Source: an uncultured Mycobacteriales bacterium
Lineage (GTDB): Bacteria > Actinomycetota > Actinomycetes > Mycobacteriales > CADCTP01
Assembly: GCA_902805565.1 (NCBI GenBank)
Contig: CADCTP010000128.1
Coordinates: 1-43,137 of the forward strand
Length of the DNA: 43,137 nt
Reading direction: 5' to 3'
Part shown: in pieces, positions 26,539 to 43,137 of the stretch
How the letters are laid out: each line of letters begins with the position of its first letter
Numbering within the stretch: the first letter of the stretch is position 1
Program-made: the position numbers and the translations under genes
Notes under the pieces: model-generated
What the model was told of the DNA's origin: nothing
The model's database searches: none
What the model saw: only the letters and a program-made list of their open reading frames with translations

Positions 26539-29082
<2,544 letters not shown>

Positions 29083-35935: not shown

Positions 35936-38900
35936 TCACGTGCCCGGCCCCGGCGGCACCGGGCCGGGCGCCGCGTCCGGGTCGGGCACCAGCCGCAGCG
36001 CCACCGAGCCGGCGTGGAAGGCGCGCAGGCCGTCCACGGTGCACACCAGGTCGGCGACCAGCTCCGGCTCCGCGCCGGCCCGCAGCTCCCGGACGAACAC
36101 CTCGTAGACCAGCTCCCGGGACGCCGGCGTCACCTGCCCGCGGCAGCGCATCCGGTACGGCCGCTCCGGCACCGGCTCGAACAGCCAGCCGTCCCGGTCC
36201 AGCGTGCAGCCCAACCCGGCCAGGTAGAACGACATCGCCTGGAAGCAGCCCTCGAACATCAGGCTGCCCGGCATGCACGGGTCGTTGTGGAAGTGGCCGG
36301 CGAAGAACCAGTCGTTGTCCGCGACCGCCGTCCGGGCCCGCAGGTAGCCGCGCCCCCACGGGCCGCCCAGCGGGTCCAGGTCGGTCACCTCGTCCAGCAG
36401 CAGCAGGTCCCCGTCGCAGACCCGGGGCGTACGCAGGTGCTCCAGGGTCGGCTCCCAGCCCGGGCCGAAGCACTCCAGCGGCTTGCCGTCGGCGAACGCC
36501 CGCACCTCGTCCCGGCCGAACGACCGCGCCGCGGGCACCAGCACCGGCGGGTCCACCCGGCCGCCGGCCGGCGGGTCCGCCGCCGGGGTCCACAGCAGAC
36601 CGTCCGTCCCGGCCAGCTCGGCGTCGGTGAAGAAGCCGGCCTGGGCGGAGCGGAGGCTCAGCCGGCGCTCGGTGCCGACGTGGCAGTCGTACCGGAAGAA
36701 GAACAGGCGGATGCCGTCGTACTCGGCGTGCCCGTCGATCGCGATGTCGAAGCGGAGGGTCTCGCCGACCTTGGCGACCGGGCCGTGGAAGGTCAGCTCG
36801 GCGCCGAGCAGCCGGTAGACCCGCTCGCCCCGGTTGAGCAGGTCGACGCCGAGCCAGCTGATCAGCAGCAGGTCGGCCTGCCCGGCCTCCATCATCACGC
36901 CCGCCGGCATCCGGCCGGCGTGGTCCAGATACCAGGAGTCGGGGCGGACGTCGGTCTCGGTGGACATCGAGCCGGTCCCCATCGTGGCCGGCTCCGCATC
37001 GATGGCGGTCACCCGGTCGGCCAGCAGCATCGGCGGGGCCGGCATCCGGGTCTGCCGCCGGTACGCGTCCTGGGCGGCGAAGGCGGGTCCGAAGAGGACG
37101 GAGAGGTCGCCGGTGGACCCGTACTCGAGCTGCTGCCGATCCAGCACCGGCACCCGGGCCAGGTCCACCGGCCGGGCACCGGGGTGCGGTACCGGCCGCT
37201 GCGCCGCGGCCCGGACCGGGAGCTCGCCCGCGGGTTCGTCCGTGCCGGCCGGGGTCCCGCGGGCGGGCGCGTCGGTTCCGGTGGCCGTCCGGGTCCGGGC
37301 CGGGTCCGCGGGGCCGGTGCCGGTCGGGTCGACGAGGCCGGCCAGGCCGGCCCGCAAGGTCAGGTAGCGCTCGTGGACGGCGGCCTGTCGGGCCAGGAAG
37401 TCGGCGTGCACCTCGGCGATCCGCCGGTGCTCCAGCACCGCCACCCCGGCCCCGACGGGCGTCGCGGGGGCCGGCCGCAGCGGGAGCAGGTGCAGCGCGG
37501 GGAGGTGGACCGGGACGGGGACCGTGCGGGTGGGGGCGGGCGCCGGGAGGTGCGCCGCGTCCAGGCCGTCCAGGTACGCCGCCGCGTCCACCGGCACCCC
37601 CGCCGCCAGCAGTTCCGCCACCGCCCCGGCCACCCCGGACCCGCCGTCCAGCGCGACCGCCACGTGCTCCCGGTCGCCGAGCGTCGCGCCGATCCAGTCC
37701 GTGCACAGCCGCCGCGGCCCGTGCTCGACGAACACCCGTACCCCGTCCTCCCAGGCCAGCCGTACGGTCGCCGCGAAGTCCATGGTCCCCATCGCCTGGC
37801 TGGTGAGCGCGTCCGCGCAGGCGTCCGGCGACGGGTCGTACGACCGGACCTCTCCGCAGGTGTAGAGCCGCGGCCCCGGGACGGTGTCGTGCCGGTTGAG
37901 CCGCCGCCACTCGTCCCGGACCTCGCGGGTCTCCGGCACGTGCACCGCCAGGTCGTACGGGACCCGCAGCGCGTATCCCGGCAGCCGGGCCAGCACCTCG
38001 GCGAGCCGGTCCGCGTGCCCGCCGACCACGCAGGACGCCGGCGCGTTCACCGCCACCAGGTGCGTCCCCGGCAGCAGCGCGGCCCGGACCTCCGCCGCCG
38101 GCGCGCCGACCAGCCAGGTCGCCCAGTCGCCGGGCGGGATCCCGTCCCGCGCCCAGGCCCGCCGCACCGCCCGGAACTCGCCGGCCACCTCGCGGCTGAA
38201 CATCCCGGCCGCGGTGAGCGCCGCCACGTGCCCGGCCACGTCCCCGGGCCAGATGCCCAGCGCGACCAGCGCGGCCGACTCGCCGGCCGAGTAGCCGAGC
38301 ACGGCGTCCGGCCGCAGCCCGAGCACGTCCCGGCTGATCCGCGCGTGCACCACCGACAGCACCCCGGAGCCCCAGATGCGGTCGGCGACCGGCACCTCGG
38401 CCGCGGGATCGCCGTACGCCCAGCCGGTCATCCGGCGCACCAGCCCCGGCCGGTCGGTCAGCCCGCCGGTGCCGCGGGCGAGCAGCAGCTCCCGGCCCAT
38501 CTCGGGATAGGCGGAGATGCCCCCGGCGAAGACGTACGCCAGCCGGCCGGCGACCGGTCGGTCCCGGAACGCGACGCCGGCCGGGCCGAGGGCCTCGCCG
38601 GCCAGCCAGGCCGCGGCGGCGGTACGGCGGGCGTCGAGGTCCGCGGGGTCGGCCAGCACCACCAGCCGGGCCGGGCCGTCCCCGCCCTCGCGGCCGGCCC
38701 GGGCCGCGGCGACCGCGGCGGCCCGGTCGGCACCCGAGTAGACGTGCGGGCGGGCGGGGCGGCGGGCGACCCAGCCGACCGTACGGCCGGCGCGCAGCCG
38801 GACCCGGCCACCGGGCAGGCCGGTCGAGTCGACCCGGACCTCCGCGGTCCGCGCGTCCAGCGCCGCCGCCGCGGCCGCGCCGGCCCGCGCGACCGCCTGG

Positions 38901-41086
38901 TGCCGCAGGCAGAGCACCGCCGCCACCACGTCGAGCAGCCCCCGGGCCGCCTGCGCCGTCCCGACCAGCTCCCCGGTGTCGATCCCACCCGGCCCGAAGG
39001 ACAGGTCCGCCGCCGCCTCGGTCACCCGGTCCTCGGGGTCGGCGCCGATCCTGACGTCCTCGAGCAGGGCCAGGATGTCCTGGCCGGCACGGCGGGCGTC
39101 GGACTCCCGGCGCAGGACCAGGGCCACGGCGGCGTCGGTGGTCCGTACGGTCCGGCCCAGGGCGGCCTGCGCGGCCCGGTGCACCGGCTCGTCGACGGCG
39201 TCGACCGCGCCGACCACCACCGCGTCCGCCTCGCCGCGGCGCAGCGCCCCGGCGGCCAGCGACAGCGCCAGCACCCCGGACGCCTCCTCGGCCAGCACCG
39301 CGAACCCGGGGCCGGTCAGGTCGAGCTGGGAGTTGATCCGGTTGACCACCAGGTTCGGCATCGAGCCGAGGACGTCGACCGCCTCCATCACCGGGGCGAC
39401 CGCGTCGGCCTGCCCCGCCGCGACGTGCTCGCGGGTGCGGAACCGGGACGGCTCGGGGTCCACCGCCATCCCGAGCACCACCATCGTCCGCGGTCCGGCC
39501 AGGTCCAGCCCGGCGGCGGCCTCCCGCGCCGCCTCCAGGACCAGGGTCTGCTGCCCGAGCGCCCGGGTGAGGTCGCGCGGCGGGAACCGCAGCCCGGCCA
39601 GCGCGACGTCCACGCTCCGCGCCGGATCGCCGGTGCCGGCCGCCCCGTCCGCCCGGTCGGCCGCGCCGGCCCCGTCGAAGAGCAGCCGCCGCAGGTCCAC
39701 CGCGCTGGCCCCGCCCGCCACCCGGGCCCCCACCGCCACCACCGCCACCGCCTCGGCCGCCGGCCCGGTCCCGGCCGCGTGGCCGTACGGTCCGGCGGTG
39801 GGCATCGGGGCGGCCCACCCGGCCGTGCCGGGGTCGCCCGCGTCCACCACCAGGTGGGCGTTGTTCCCGCCGAACCCGAACGAGCTCAGCGCCGCCCGCC
39901 GCCGCCCCGTCCACTCCTCGGCCTCGGTGACCACCCGCAGGCCGGTCCCGGTCAGCGCCGGCAGCGGCTCGGTCAGGCCCGGCGTCGGCGGCCGCACCCC
40001 GGCCTCCATCGCGGCCAGGATCTTCAGCAGCCCGGCCAGCCCGGCGACGGCGAACGAGTGCCCGAAGTTCGCCTTCACCGACCCGATCGGCAGCCCGCCG
40101 CCCGGGAACACCCCGGCCATGCTGCGCACCTCGGCCGCGTCGCCGAGCGCGGTCCCGGTGGCGTGGCACTCGACCAGCGAGACCGTCCCCGGGTCCACCC
40201 CCGCCGACGCGTACGCCGAGCGCATCGCCCGCCGCTGCCCGTCCTCGGACGGGGTGAGCAGCCCGGCCGCCCGGCCGTCGTTGGACAGCCCGATCCCGGA
40301 GATCACGCCGAGCACCGGTGTCCCGGCGGCGCGGGCGTCGGCCAGCCGCATCAGCGCGACCGCCGCGGCCCCCTGCGCCGGCAGCAGCCCGTCGGCGTCC
40401 CGCTGGAACGGCCGGCTCCGCCCGGTCGGGCTCATCGCGCCGACCGCCCGGAACGCCAGGTGCAGCAGCAGCGTGTCGGTGCCGTTCACGCCGCCGGCCA
40501 GCATGAGGTCGGCGGACCGGTCGTGCAGCCGGTCGCAGGCCAGCTTCAGCGCGTACAGGGAGGAGGCGCAGGCGGCCTCGACGGCGTAGCCGCCGGCGGA
40601 CAGGCCCAGCGCGCGCGCCGCCAGCTGCGCGGACAGCCCGGCCATGAAGTGGTTGCGCGGGTCGACCGGCGCCCCGCCCAGCCACACCGACTCGGCGAAC
40701 CGGGCCATCCCGGTCGACGGCGACGCCAGGATCCCCAGCACCAGGCCGGCCCGCCGGCCCGGCGCCACCCCGAGCCCCGCCTCGGCCAGCGCGGACCGCC
40801 CCGAGTGCAGCACCCAGTGCACGAACGGGTCCAACCCGGCCAGCTCGTCCCGGGCCAGCAGCAGCCCGGCCGGGTCGAGCGCGAAGTCCCGGACGAAGCC
40901 CCCCACGTCACCGAGCGGCCGCTCGGTCCCCACCGGCGTGTACGGCCGGGGCAGCTCCCAGCGCTCCTCCGGCGCCGGCCCGAGGCTGACCACCCCGGAC
41001 AGGACGTTGCGGCCGAAGGTGACCGGGTCGGCCGCGCCGGGCAGCGCGCAGCCGCGGCCGACGACGGCGATCGGTTCGAAGGACAC
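35936..41086 (-). CDS. PUFA-synthase-like type I PKS: KS-CLF-AT-DH-DH
   Basis: 1716 residues. Ketosynthase, about 1-420: Cys173 (VEAACASSLYAL), His308 (ECHATGT), His343 (KANFGHS). A KS-like chain-length-factor domain, about 490-770, has Glu in place of the Cys (FAVLAEEASGVLAL, 595-608), as in PfaC CLF domains. Acyltransferase, about 845-1170, with Ser933 in GYSAGES. A Pro/Ala/Thr-rich linker, about 1180-1305. Two FabA-type dehydratase halves: about 1310-1500 (HAGRMPAGVMMEAGQADLLL) and 1515-1716 (NDWFFAGHFHNDPCMPG, His1598). There is no ACP, KR or ER. The order combines PfaC (KS-CLF-DH-DH) with an AT, as in omega-3 PUFA or related secondary-lipid synthases. It must work with ACPs of the partner PKS upstream, 6 bp away. 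The product is unknown. Confidence 0.93.
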   Translation of the reverse strand: MSFEPIAVVGRGCALPGAADPVTFGRNVLSGVVSLGPAPEERWELPRPYTPVGTERPLGDVGGFVRDFALDPAGLLLARDELAGLDPFVHWVLHSGRSALAEAGLGVAPGRRAGLVLGILASPSTGMARFAESVWLGGAPVDPRNHFMAGLSAQLAARALGLSAGGYAVEAACASSLYALKLACDRLHDRSADLMLAGGVNGTDTLLLHLAFRAVGAMSPTGRSRPFQRDADGLLPAQGAAAVALMRLADARAAGTPVLGVISGIGLSNDGRAAGLLTPSEDGQRRAMRSAYASAGVDPGTVSLVECHATGTALGDAAEVRSMAGVFPGGGLPIGSVKANFGHSFAVAGLAGLLKILAAMEAGVRPPTPGLTEPLPALTGTGLRVVTEAEEWTGRRRAALSSFGFGGNNAHLVVDAGDPGTAGWAAPMPTAGPYGHAAGTGPAAEAVAVVAVGARVAGGASAVDLRRLLFDGAGAADRADGAAGTGDPARSVDVALAGLRFPPRDLTRALGQQTLVLEAAREAAAGLDLAGPRTMVVLGMAVDPEPSRFRTREHVAAGQADAVAPVMEAVDVLGSMPNLVVNRINSQLDLTGPGFAVLAEEASGVLALSLAAGALRRGEADAVVVGAVDAVDEPVHRAAQAALGRTVRTTDAAVALVLRRESDARRAGQDILALLEDVRIGADPEDRVTEAAADLSFGPGGIDTGELVGTAQAARGLLDVVAAVLCLRHQAVARAGAAAAAALDARTAEVRVDSTGLPGGRVRLRAGRTVGWVARRPARPHVYSGADRAAAVAAARAGREGGDGPARLVVLADPADLDARRTAAAAWLAGEALGPAGVAFRDRPVAGRLAYVFAGGISAYPEMGRELLLARGTGGLTDRPGLVRRMTGWAYGDPAAEVPVADRIWGSGVLSVVHARISRDVLGLRPDAVLGYSAGESAALVALGIWPGDVAGHVAALTAAGMFSREVAGEFRAVRRAWARDGIPPGDWATWLVGAPAAEVRAALLPGTHLVAVNAPASCVVGGHADRLAEVLARLPGYALRVPYDLAVHVPETREVRDEWRRLNRHDTVPGPRLYTCGEVRSYDPSPDACADALTSQAMGTMDFAATVRLAWEDGVRVFVEHGPRRLCTDWIGATLGDREHVAVALDGGSGVAGAVAELLAAGVPVDAAAYLDGLDAAHLPAPAPTRTVPVPVHLPALHLLPLRPAPATPVGAGVAVLEHRRIAEVHADFLARQAAVHERYLTLRAGLAGLVDPTGTGPADPARTRTATGTDAPARGTPAGTDEPAGELPVRAAAQRPVPHPGARPVDLARVPVLDRQQLEYGSTGDLSVLFGPAFAAQDAYRRQTRMPAPPMLLADRVTAIDAEPATMGTGSMSTETDVRPDSWYLDHAGRMPAGVMMEAGQADLLLISWLGVDLLNRGERVYRLLGAELTFHGPVAKVGETLRFDIAIDGHAEYDGIRLFFFRYDCHVGTERRLSLRSAQAGFFTDAELAGTDGLLWTPAADPPAGGRVDPPVLVPAARSFGRDEVRAFADGKPLECFGPGWEPTLEHLRTPRVCDGDLLLLDEVTDLDPLGGPWGRGYLRARTAVADNDWFFAGHFHNDPCMPGSLMFEGCFQAMSFYLAGLGCTLDRDGWLFEPVPERPYRMRCRGQVTPASRELVYEVFVRELRAGAEPELVADLVCTVDGLRAFHAGSVALRLVPDPDAAPGPVPPGPGT

Positions 41087-41092
41087 GCGTGC

Positions 41093-43137
41093 TCACCCGG
41101 TCTCGTCGGGGGCCGCCGCGGCGGCCCAGGGCGGTGCACCGGGCTCGCGCAGCTCCACCGCGACGCCGGTCAGCTCGTAGATCCGCAGGCCGGGCTTCCA
41201 GACGCTGGCCCGCCCGTACGCCCGGACCCGGCCGGGGGCGTGCGCCACGTCCAGGACGTGCACCTCCAGGGTGACCTCCCCGTCGCCGGCCAGGAACTGC
41301 CCGCGGTACCGCCAGTCCAGCCGCACCCCCACCGGCAGCACGAACTCCGGGTCCCGCAGCCCGGCCGCGTGCCCGGAGTCGACCAGCCACTCCTGCAGCG
41401 CCTGCAGCACCGTCTCGATCCCGATGGAGCCGGGGATCACCGGGTCCAGGTGGAAGTGCCGGGCGAAGAACCAGGCCGCGGGGTCGATCGGCCGCCGGGC
41501 GTGCAGGTCGCCGCGGCCGGCGTCGCCGCCGCCGTCGACCACGCCGACCGAGTCGAGCAGGGCCAGCTCGCCGCTGCCGGCCCGCGGCCCGGTCCCGGCG
41601 GCCCGCCGCGCCGCCACGTCGATCGTCCGGACCGGCCGGTCGCCCAGCCACGGCGGCACGTGCCGGCCGCCGTCCAGGCCGGCCTGCGCGGTCATGTCCC
41701 GGAAGTGGCCGAACAGCGTGCTGCCCCGGTAGAACGGCTCGCCGCCGGTGGCCAGCTCGAAGTCGAACCGCTGCAGCAGCGCCCCGCGCACGCCGGTCGT
41801 GGCGGTCAGCAGCGTGCGCTGCCGGACGGTCCGGTCGCGCAGGTCGACCTCGCGCAGGACGGTGGCGTGCCCCTCCAGGTTGCGCAGGCTCAGCTCGTCG
41901 GTGTCCGGCGGCGGCTCGGCCCCGAGGTAGTAGCCGGGCACCAGCGCGGACTGCAGCGCGGTCTCCAGCAGCACCAGGTTCGGGGCCGACGCGGTGGAGG
42001 TGCGGGCGTAGTACCAGGCGTCGGCGGGGGAGTCGTACTCCGTCTCGTGCTCGGCCCCGCCCGGCACCTCGTGCGGCGCCACCAGCACCCGGTCCAGCAG
42101 CTGGAGGCCGTACGCGGGCAGCCGGGCCGACCGCCGCCCGTCGAACCGGGCCCAGCGCGGCCCGAACGCCGTGCTCAGCGAGCCCCGGGCGCAGTGGGTC
42201 AGGTGGTGCTCGGTCCGTACCGCCCGCGCGGTCGGCCCGGCACCGGGACGCAGCCGGACGGTCAGGCCGGTCACCCGCCCGTGCGGCCCGACCGCGTCCA
42301 CCCGCAGCCACGGCACCGGGACCAGGTCGATCCCGGTGGCGGTCACCGTCAGCGGGCCCTCCGCCGTCCCGGTCACCGTGTCCGCGGCGTCCCGCTCGAC
42401 GGTCGGGTCGGCCACCGTGACGTGCAGGCCGGCGGCGACCGCGAGCAGCTCGGCGGCCTGCGCGGTCGCCTTCTCCAGGTCCGCGCCCGGCCGGCACCGG
42501 GCGGTCAGCGCGAACCGGCCGGTCGCCACGGTCAGGTCGGTCACCTCGGCCAGCGCGTCCAGGGTCAGCGGGAACGTCCCGTGCCGCGGGCCGAGGACCG
42601 TCGTGCCGGTCTCCAGCGCGACCAGCTCGGCGCCGGTCAGCGCGCCGCGGGTGGGCCGCTCCGGCGGCCGGAACGCGTCCTCCGGAGCGCCCTCCCGGTC
42701 CCGTACGGCCCGGGCGAAGCGGTCGGCCATCCCCGGCGTCGCCACCACGGTGACGTCGGCGAGCCGGTGCAGCACCCGGCCGGCCGGGTCGGTCGCGGTC
42801 ACGTCGACCACGAGGCTGTCGGCGGCGACCCGGACGTGGTCGACGACCGCGGTGAACGGCGTCCCGTCCGGCAGCGGGGCCGGCAGGTCCACCCGGCCGA
42901 TCGACAAGGGCAGGCAGGCCTGCCCGAGCACCCGGCGGGCCAGGATCGTCGGGCCGTGCAGCAGCACGTCGGCCAGCACGGGGGAGTAGGTGCGGCCGGC
43001 GTACCCGGGCAGCGGCGCGTCCGGCAGCCGGCACGCCAGCTCCAGCCGGTCATCGGCGGCGGCCACCACCCGGCGCACGCCCTGCAGGACCGGCCCGTGG
43101 AACAGCGTCCCGTCCCGGTAGACGTCCGCGCCGGCCG
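41093..43137 (-). CDS. PUFA-synthase-like PKS, C-terminal part with PKS-type DH and two FabA-type DH domains; 5' partial
   Basis: The frame stays open to the window edge, so the gene begins beyond 43137 and a GTG at 43078 is internal. At the edge YRDGTLFHGPVLQGVRRV marks the hot-dog dehydratase of a type I PKS (LFHGP motif). Then come two FabA-like halves: one around CARGSLSTAFGPRWARF and ETEYDSPADAWYYA, the second with WFFARHFHLDPVIPGS and GIETVLQALQEWL. The protein ends in DETG. This matches a PfaA-like C-terminal DH fused to a PfaC-like DH pair. KS, AT, ACP and KR domains would be expected upstream but cannot be seen. The stop is 6 bp before the next PKS gene, so the two are one operon. 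Confidence 0.9.
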   Translation of the reverse strand, partial: AGADVYRDGTLFHGPVLQGVRRVVAAADDRLELACRLPDAPLPGYAGRTYSPVLADVLLHGPTILARRVLGQACLPLSIGRVDLPAPLPDGTPFTAVVDHVRVAADSLVVDVTATDPAGRVLHRLADVTVVATPGMADRFARAVRDREGAPEDAFRPPERPTRGALTGAELVALETGTTVLGPRHGTFPLTLDALAEVTDLTVATGRFALTARCRPGADLEKATAQAAELLAVAAGLHVTVADPTVERDAADTVTGTAEGPLTVTATGIDLVPVPWLRVDAVGPHGRVTGLTVRLRPGAGPTARAVRTEHHLTHCARGSLSTAFGPRWARFDGRRSARLPAYGLQLLDRVLVAPHEVPGGAEHETEYDSPADAWYYARTSTASAPNLVLLETALQSALVPGYYLGAEPPPDTDELSLRNLEGHATVLREVDLRDRTVRQRTLLTATTGVRGALLQRFDFELATGGEPFYRGSTLFGHFRDMTAQAGLDGGRHVPPWLGDRPVRTIDVAARRAAGTGPRAGSGELALLDSVGVVDGGGDAGRGDLHARRPIDPAAWFFARHFHLDPVIPGSIGIETVLQALQEWLVDSGHAAGLRDPEFVLPVGVRLDWRYRGQFLAGDGEVTLEVHVLDVAHAPGRVRAYGRASVWKPGLRIYELTGVAVELREPGAPPWAAAAAPDETG

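What the first reader, a model, noticed from the sequence alone, without database searches (positions are those of the whole stretch)
35936..41086. Unusual KS-CLF-AT-DH-DH PUFA-synthase-like megasynthase
One 1716-residue protein joins a complete KS, a KS-like CLF with Glu for Cys, an AT and a FabA-type DH pair, without ACP, KR or ER. Classical bacterial omega-3 systems split KS-CLF-DH-DH (PfaC) and AT (PfaB). The fused order with the AT between CLF and DH in an actinomycete points to a little-studied secondary-lipid pathway with an unknown product.
Basis: partly seen in the sequence, partly recalled or inferred. Interest (0 to 1): 0.8.

Follow-up and report, generated by a model that had tools for sequence, protein, structure and literature searches.

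The report
Mosaic PUFA-synthase-like lipid megasynthase
The big enzyme is a standard subunit of an actinomycete "secondary lipid" factory related to omega-3 fatty-acid synthases; what is unusual is that one of its two double-bond-making dehydratase units is missing and a different version, from another lineage, is fused to the neighbouring subunit instead.

Summary
It is a fused PfaBC of a type-L-like PUFA/secondary-lipid synthase. The missing partners are on contig C89 (PfaD, KS-AT of PfaA); a PptT-like PPTase is on C163. The real oddity was not noticed. In 85 of 86 related loci a second DH'-DH pair follows the first; the exception is cut by a contig end. The window protein stops cleanly after pair 1. 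A second DH'-DH instead forms the C-terminus of the upstream PfaA-like protein (41093-43135), and it and its PS-DH belong to a different lineage (PfaA-DH-PfaD clusters without KS-CLF). So this looks like a natural chimera of two synthase lineages, with exchange of dehydratase parts known to steer product structure. A divergent aminotransferase-thioester reductase operon next to PfaD suggests reductive release and amination, an inference only. Product unknown. The ACP-KR stretch of PfaA is not in the assembly.

The parts
35936..41086 (-). Fused PfaBC subunit, 1716 aa, KS-CLF-AT-DH'-DH; only one dehydratase didomain
39839..41077 (-). KS domain (residues 4-416), Cys-His-His intact
   Evidence: type-L-like PfaBC KS clade
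38747..39748 (-). CLF domain (about residues 447-780), Glu replaces the active Cys (AEEASG)
37652..38569 (-). PfaB-type acyltransferase domain (about residues 840-1145), GYSAGE Ser and His present
   Evidence: (TIGR02816 44 bits, below its cut-off)
36587..37141 (-). DH'1 pseudo-dehydratase hotdog (about residues 1316-1500)
35987..36424 (-). DH1 FabA-like dehydratase hotdog (about residues 1555-1700), HFHNDPCMPG motif; type-L pair-1 clade
41093..43135 (-). C-terminal 680 aa of a PfaA-like protein cut by the contig end: second half of PS-DH, linker domain, DH'-DH
42692..43135 (-). PS-DH, second half (P0003 residues 1-148), 49% to X-type and 31% to type-L PfaA
41141..42202 (-). Second DH'-DH didomain (P0003 residues about 312-665), HFHLDPVIPG motif; X lineage, fused to PfaA; predicted double hotdog
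41087..41092 (-). 6-nt gap between the PfaA stop (TGA) and the PfaBC start (GTG): one operon

Best explanation
35936-41086 (minus) is the PfaBC subunit of a type-L-like, iterative, PUFA-synthase-like secondary lipid synthase, encoded as ECH-PfaD-PfaA-PfaBC and split over contigs C89 and C128. How it most likely works: PfaA loads malonyl units on its ACPs and condenses some cycles (its KS and AT are seen; ACP and KR are inferred, in the assembly gap); the KS-CLF of PfaBC condenses other chain lengths; KR reduces; a PKS-type DH and two FabA-like DH didomains dehydrate and possibly isomerise; PfaD reduces selected enoyl groups; the AT of PfaBC transfers the finished chain. The distinctive feature is a natural domain exchange: PfaBC has lost its second DH didomain, and PfaA ends in a PS-DH plus DH'-DH block from another actinomycete lineage (PfaA - DH - PfaD clusters without KS-CLF), so the second dehydratase works from PfaA instead of PfaBC and is a foreign version. 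Because DH exchanges change chain length and double-bond pattern in experiments on related synthases, the product probably differs from that of ordinary type-L synthases. Shown: domain content, lineage of each domain, gene order within each contig. Inferred: that C89 and C128 carry the same PfaA, the catalytic roles, the altered product.
For: Domains and active sites. Best identity to type-L / X-type by segment: PfaD 61/53, PfaA KS 69/52 (74 to L163), PfaA AT 52/41, PS-DH 31/49, DH' 36/53, DH 39/60, PfaBC KS 61/34, CLF 51/29, AT 54/30, DH1 65/36. DH tree: pair 1, pair 2 and X-type are each one clade with high support; the window PfaBC DH lies inside type-L pair 1 (100/99), the window PfaA DH inside X (8 rows, 100/98) and outside pair 2 (100/97). 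KS tree. DH2 follows DH1 in 85 of 86 loci; the exception L062 is contig-truncated. The window protein stops at the DH1/DH2 boundary and no FabA-like remnant lies downstream. P0003 as one continuous ORF was found only in the window among 399 genomes sampled from the order. PfaD and PfaA KS-AT on C89; one PPTase. DH swaps change products: PMC6731297, PMC9113149; roles of DH types: PMC9702510.
Against: The C89-C128 join is not in the assembly; the ACP-KR and PS-DH N-terminal stretch was not found, so the ACP number and the catalytic His of the PS-DH are unseen. Draft genome in 460 contigs: a misassembly in C128 cannot be wholly excluded, though PfaBC's clean lack of DH2 next to a PfaA that carries one argues against it. 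The search of the order was a sample, so other genomes may share the arrangement. No product is known.
Confidence: 0.8

Rival explanations
1. The genome holds two PUFA-like loci: an ordinary type-L PfaD-PfaA on C89, and on C128 the end of a second, X-type PfaA-DH that happens to precede a PfaBC which has lost its DH2.
For: The PfaA C-terminus is X-type while the C89 PfaA is type-L-like; the contigs are not joined.
Against: Only one PfaD and one strong PfaA KS were found in the genome; the PfaA C-terminus and PfaBC are 6 nt apart in one operon; X-type clusters continue into PfaD, not PfaBC.
Confidence: 0.12
2. Assembly chimera: X-type and type-L sequences were joined artificially near 41090.
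For: Fragmented draft genome (460 contigs); repeated KS and ACP sequences are prone to misjoins.
Against: A misjoin at the PfaA/PfaBC border would leave PfaBC with its normal DH2; instead it ends with its own stop codon at the domain border, and the next gene ends within 10 bases on the other strand. No further FabA-like domain or PfaD was seen in the genome.
Confidence: 0.06
3. The cluster makes a long-chain unsaturated amine (or aldehyde or alcohol): the divergent aminotransferase and thioester reductase on C89 reductively release and aminate the chain, in the logic of the zeamine and fabclavine pathways. This adds to, rather than excludes, the mosaic reading.
For: AMT (PF00202; second-best NCBIfam match is PigE) and a thioester-reductase-like SDR (PF07993, 119 bits) overlap by 4 nt and lie divergent to ECH-PfaD with about 210 bp between; thioester-reductase-like genes also lie just upstream of PfaD in five Streptomyces relatives; precedent in PMC9113149 and PMC12964715.
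Against: The TIGR01746 score of 103 is below its cut-off of 213; AMT is closest to putrescine aminotransferase models; the end of a modular PKS is also next door, so the pair could serve that cluster.
Confidence: 0.35
4. It makes membrane omega-3/omega-6 PUFAs like Aetherobacter or Minicystis.
For: Same overall type-L logic; KS, CLF, AT and DH1 conserved.
Against: No AGPAT domain on the protein; the DH set is altered; PMC3098273 notes that PUFA production had not been demonstrated in S. coelicolor; TR/AMT neighbours.
Confidence: 0.2

Closest known systems
Type L secondary lipid / PUFA synthases (S. coelicolor, Sorangium; Aetherobacter classed as type L in PMC4882568; Minicystis alike)
   Same: PfaD 5' of PfaA; fused PfaBC; both KS domains, CLF, AT and DH1 are nearest to loci of this organisation
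   Different: PfaBC lacks the second DH didomain and has no AGPAT; PfaA carries a foreign PS-DH plus DH'-DH
X-type clusters PfaA-DH-PfaD without KS-CLF (L149-L155; probably the Nocardia pfaA clusters of PMC4035055)
   Same: PS-DH and DH'-DH of the window PfaA are about 49-60% identical and form one clade with them
   Different: There the DH is a separate gene and no PfaBC is found within the 15-20 kb read; here it is fused to PfaA of a synthase that has a type-L-like PfaBC
Type D pfa (Psychroflexus, Aureispira)
   Same: AT fused between CLF and DH' in PfaC
   Different: KR on a separate gene; DH2 set in PfaBC; makes ARA/EPA
Zeamine/fabclavine PUFA-like synthases
   Same: PUFA-like synthase with aminotransferase and thioester reductase nearby
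   Different: There the AMT is fused to the ER protein and polyamines are made together with PKS-NRPS; here AMT and TR are separate divergent genes and no role is shown

Membership tests
Type L secondary lipid synthase | Fused pfaBC with KS, CLF and AT | tested here: met
   The 2011 text writes the order KS-CLF-DH2-AT; relatives here and Aetherobacter have the AT before the DHs
Type L secondary lipid synthase | Two DH didomains in pfaBC | tested here: not met
Type L secondary lipid synthase | pfaD at the 5' end of the cluster | tested here: met
   C89: PfaD directly before PfaA; joined to C128 only by inference
Type L secondary lipid synthase | Proximal (PfaA) KS in the type L clade | tested here: met
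   The clade is built from loci of type-L gene order; no named type-L reference sequence was included
Type L secondary lipid synthase | Tandem ACPs and KR in PfaA | tested here: inconclusive
   assembly gap, not found
Type L secondary lipid synthase | Lipid product | not testable with these tools
   no chemistry
Canonical omega-3 Pfa (types A/B) | AT on a separate PfaB | tested here: not met
   the AT is inside the fused protein
X-type PfaA-DH-PfaD clusters | PS-DH and DH'-DH of this lineage | tested here: met
X-type PfaA-DH-PfaD clusters | DH encoded separately, followed by PfaD, no KS-CLF protein | tested here: not met
   fused to PfaA and followed by PfaBC
Zeamine/fabclavine-like synthase | Aminotransferase and thioester reductase acting on the PUFA-like chain | tested here: inconclusive
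   genes present next to PfaD; their action is not testable here

The most novel reading that the evidence does not exclude
A naturally recombined PUFA synthase in which evolution carried out the dehydratase swap that engineers perform, importing a PS-DH plus DH'-DH block from another lineage and dropping its own second DH, to make a long-chain unsaturated amine or aldehyde-derived metabolite not known from actinomycetes.
Probability: 0.25. Interest if true: 0.65.

Novelty: new variant of a known kind. Interest (0 to 1): 0.45.

Why it matters
Which domains set chain length and double-bond position in PUFA synthases is an open question, and DH swaps between synthases change the product. A native synthase whose two FabA-like dehydratase didomains come from different lineages and sit on different subunits is a natural experiment: it indicates that the second DH need not be on PfaBC, suggests a recombination border that evolution tolerated, and gives a direct expression test of which DH writes which double bond.

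Tried and rejected
Reading the KS-CLF-AT-DH order or the CLF Glu as novel: rejected (literature). The PfaA DH being the type-L DH2 simply moved from PfaBC: rejected by the tree, it is X-lineage. Finding the ACP-KR piece elsewhere in the assembly: only KRs of ordinary PKSs at about 32-40%. The plasmid search gave only distant fused homologues, best Azospirillum lipoferum at 48% over 78% of the query. Inferring double-bond geometry from the His/Glu dyad (both window DHs carry Glu): not used, because type-L relatives share it. Structure prediction of the PfaA DH'-DH gave moderate confidence (mean pLDDT 68, pTM 0.73) but two clear hotdogs, and the fold search matched dehydratases among other hotdog proteins.

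Full report
Observation. The open reading frame 35936-41086 lies on the minus strand and encodes 1716 aa, with the codon-position bias of a real gene. Pfam and NCBIfam give KS, an AT weakly related to PfaB, and FabA-like dehydratase domains; ACP, KR and ER are absent. The best solved relative of the KS-CLF part is PDB 6riw, 'ORF10', which from memory is Moritella PfaC. KS catalytic residues are intact, the CLF carries Glu for Cys, and the AT Ser and His are present. The window is the whole contig C128 of a 4.64-Mb, 460-contig genome.

The arrangement is common. A scan of GTDB genomes returned 80 relatives from Streptomyces, Amycolatopsis, Actinoplanes, Asanoa, Myxococcota, Hyphomonas and others, and 15 further loci came from genomes of the same order. 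Of 71 loci with a PfaBC KS and DH1, 62 have a recognisable AT, listed between CLF and DH1. Published: pfaBC [KS-CLF-AT-DH2] in types C and D (PMC3098273); Aetherobacter and Minicystis Pfa3 with KS, CLF, AT, DH, DH' and AGPAT (PMC8436480); AT relocated to the middle of pfa3, type L (PMC4882568); a fused pfaB-pfaC homologue with two DH/I domains in Streptomyces (PMC13291983).

Partners. Contig C89 (8444 bp, L017) carries, on one strand, an enoyl-CoA hydratase, PfaD (TIGR02814, 576 bits) and the start of PfaA (KS-AT), cut by the contig end. A single strong PfaA-type KS and a single PfaD were found in the genome. A PptT-like phosphopantetheinyl transferase is on C163. The stretch between C89 and C128 (end of AT, ACPs, KR, first half of PS-DH) is not in the assembly; a break at tandem ACP repeats is plausible. 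The only other genome of the genus that is held has no PfaD, so the cluster is patchy.

The unusual feature. In relatives PfaBC carries two DH'-DH pairs, in agreement with the description of PfaC as having four FabA-like domains (PMC4882568). DH2 follows DH1 within 700 bp in 85 of 86 loci, the exception being truncated by its contig. The window PfaBC stops at that border, and no FabA-like remnant lies downstream. A DH'-DH didomain is instead the C-terminus of the upstream PfaA-like protein (41093-43135). That protein's PS-DH and DH'-DH are about 49-60% identical to a different set of clusters (L149-L155), in which PfaA, a separate DH gene and PfaD follow one another with no KS-CLF protein in the 15-20 kb read; these resemble the Nocardia pfaA clusters of PMC4035055. 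PfaD, PfaA KS and AT, and all of PfaBC are instead type-L-like. A dehydratase tree of 66 didomains separates type-L pair 1, type-L pair 2 and X-type DHs with high support and puts the window PfaBC DH in the first and the window PfaA DH in the third. A KS tree puts both window KS domains in the type-L-like clades. A structure model of the PfaA DH'-DH shows two hotdogs and matches dehydratases; its active His segment is intact.

Mechanism. From the published roles of these domains (PMC9702510; PMC12895367), the synthase should extend acyl-ACP iteratively, with PfaA KS and the KS-CLF sharing chain lengths, PS-DH feeding PfaD reduction, FabA-like DHs leading to retained or shifted double bonds, and the PfaBC AT moving the finished chain. 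DH swaps in myxobacterial synthases change chain length and double-bond pattern (PMC6731297), and in Xenorhabdus a DH acts in cis or in trans (PMC9113149), so a relocated, foreign DH2 can plausibly work from PfaA and change the product. This is inference.

Release. Divergent from the pfa operon are a class III aminotransferase, a thioester-reductase-like SDR overlapping it by 4 nt, and a polyketide-cyclase-like protein. Thioester-reductase-like genes also sit just upstream of PfaD in five Streptomyces relatives. By analogy with fabclavine and zeamine, reductive release and amination are possible (about 0.35). The end of a modular PKS is adjacent, so the pair could belong to it.

Verdict. A real PUFA-synthase-like PfaBC with the usual KS-CLF-AT order, inside an unnoticed, well-supported mosaic: a new variant of a known kind. 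It is not filed as a plain type L member because one defining feature (two DH didomains in PfaBC) was tested and not met. Interest is moderate, limited by the assembly gap and the unknown product.

Noticed in passing
L017 (contig C89) 4934-7769 +: Aminotransferase, thioester-reductase-like SDR and polyketide-cyclase-like genes in a divergent operon about 210 bp from the ECH-PfaD-PfaA operon.
   Followed up: partly
L149-L155: PUFA-like clusters PfaA - separate DH'-DH - PfaD with no KS-CLF protein in the 15-20 kb read, in genomes of the same order; probably the Nocardia pfaA clusters. No product was found in the papers read.
   Followed up: partly
L076 14276-17902: Amycolatopsis sp. A133 has an extra stand-alone DH1-DH2 protein near a PfaBC whose own DH2 is very divergent (branch 1.39): another possible case of dehydratase replacement.
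   Followed up: no
L083: A type-L-like cluster in a record labelled Klebsiella pneumoniae MAG; the label is probably wrong or the bin contaminated.
   Followed up: no
window 26539-29001 -: GH9 cellulase with CBM3 domains, unrelated to the finding.
   Followed up: no
genome G000: 65 carrier-protein domain matches in a 4.6-Mb genome: rich in PKS/NRPS for its size.
   Followed up: no
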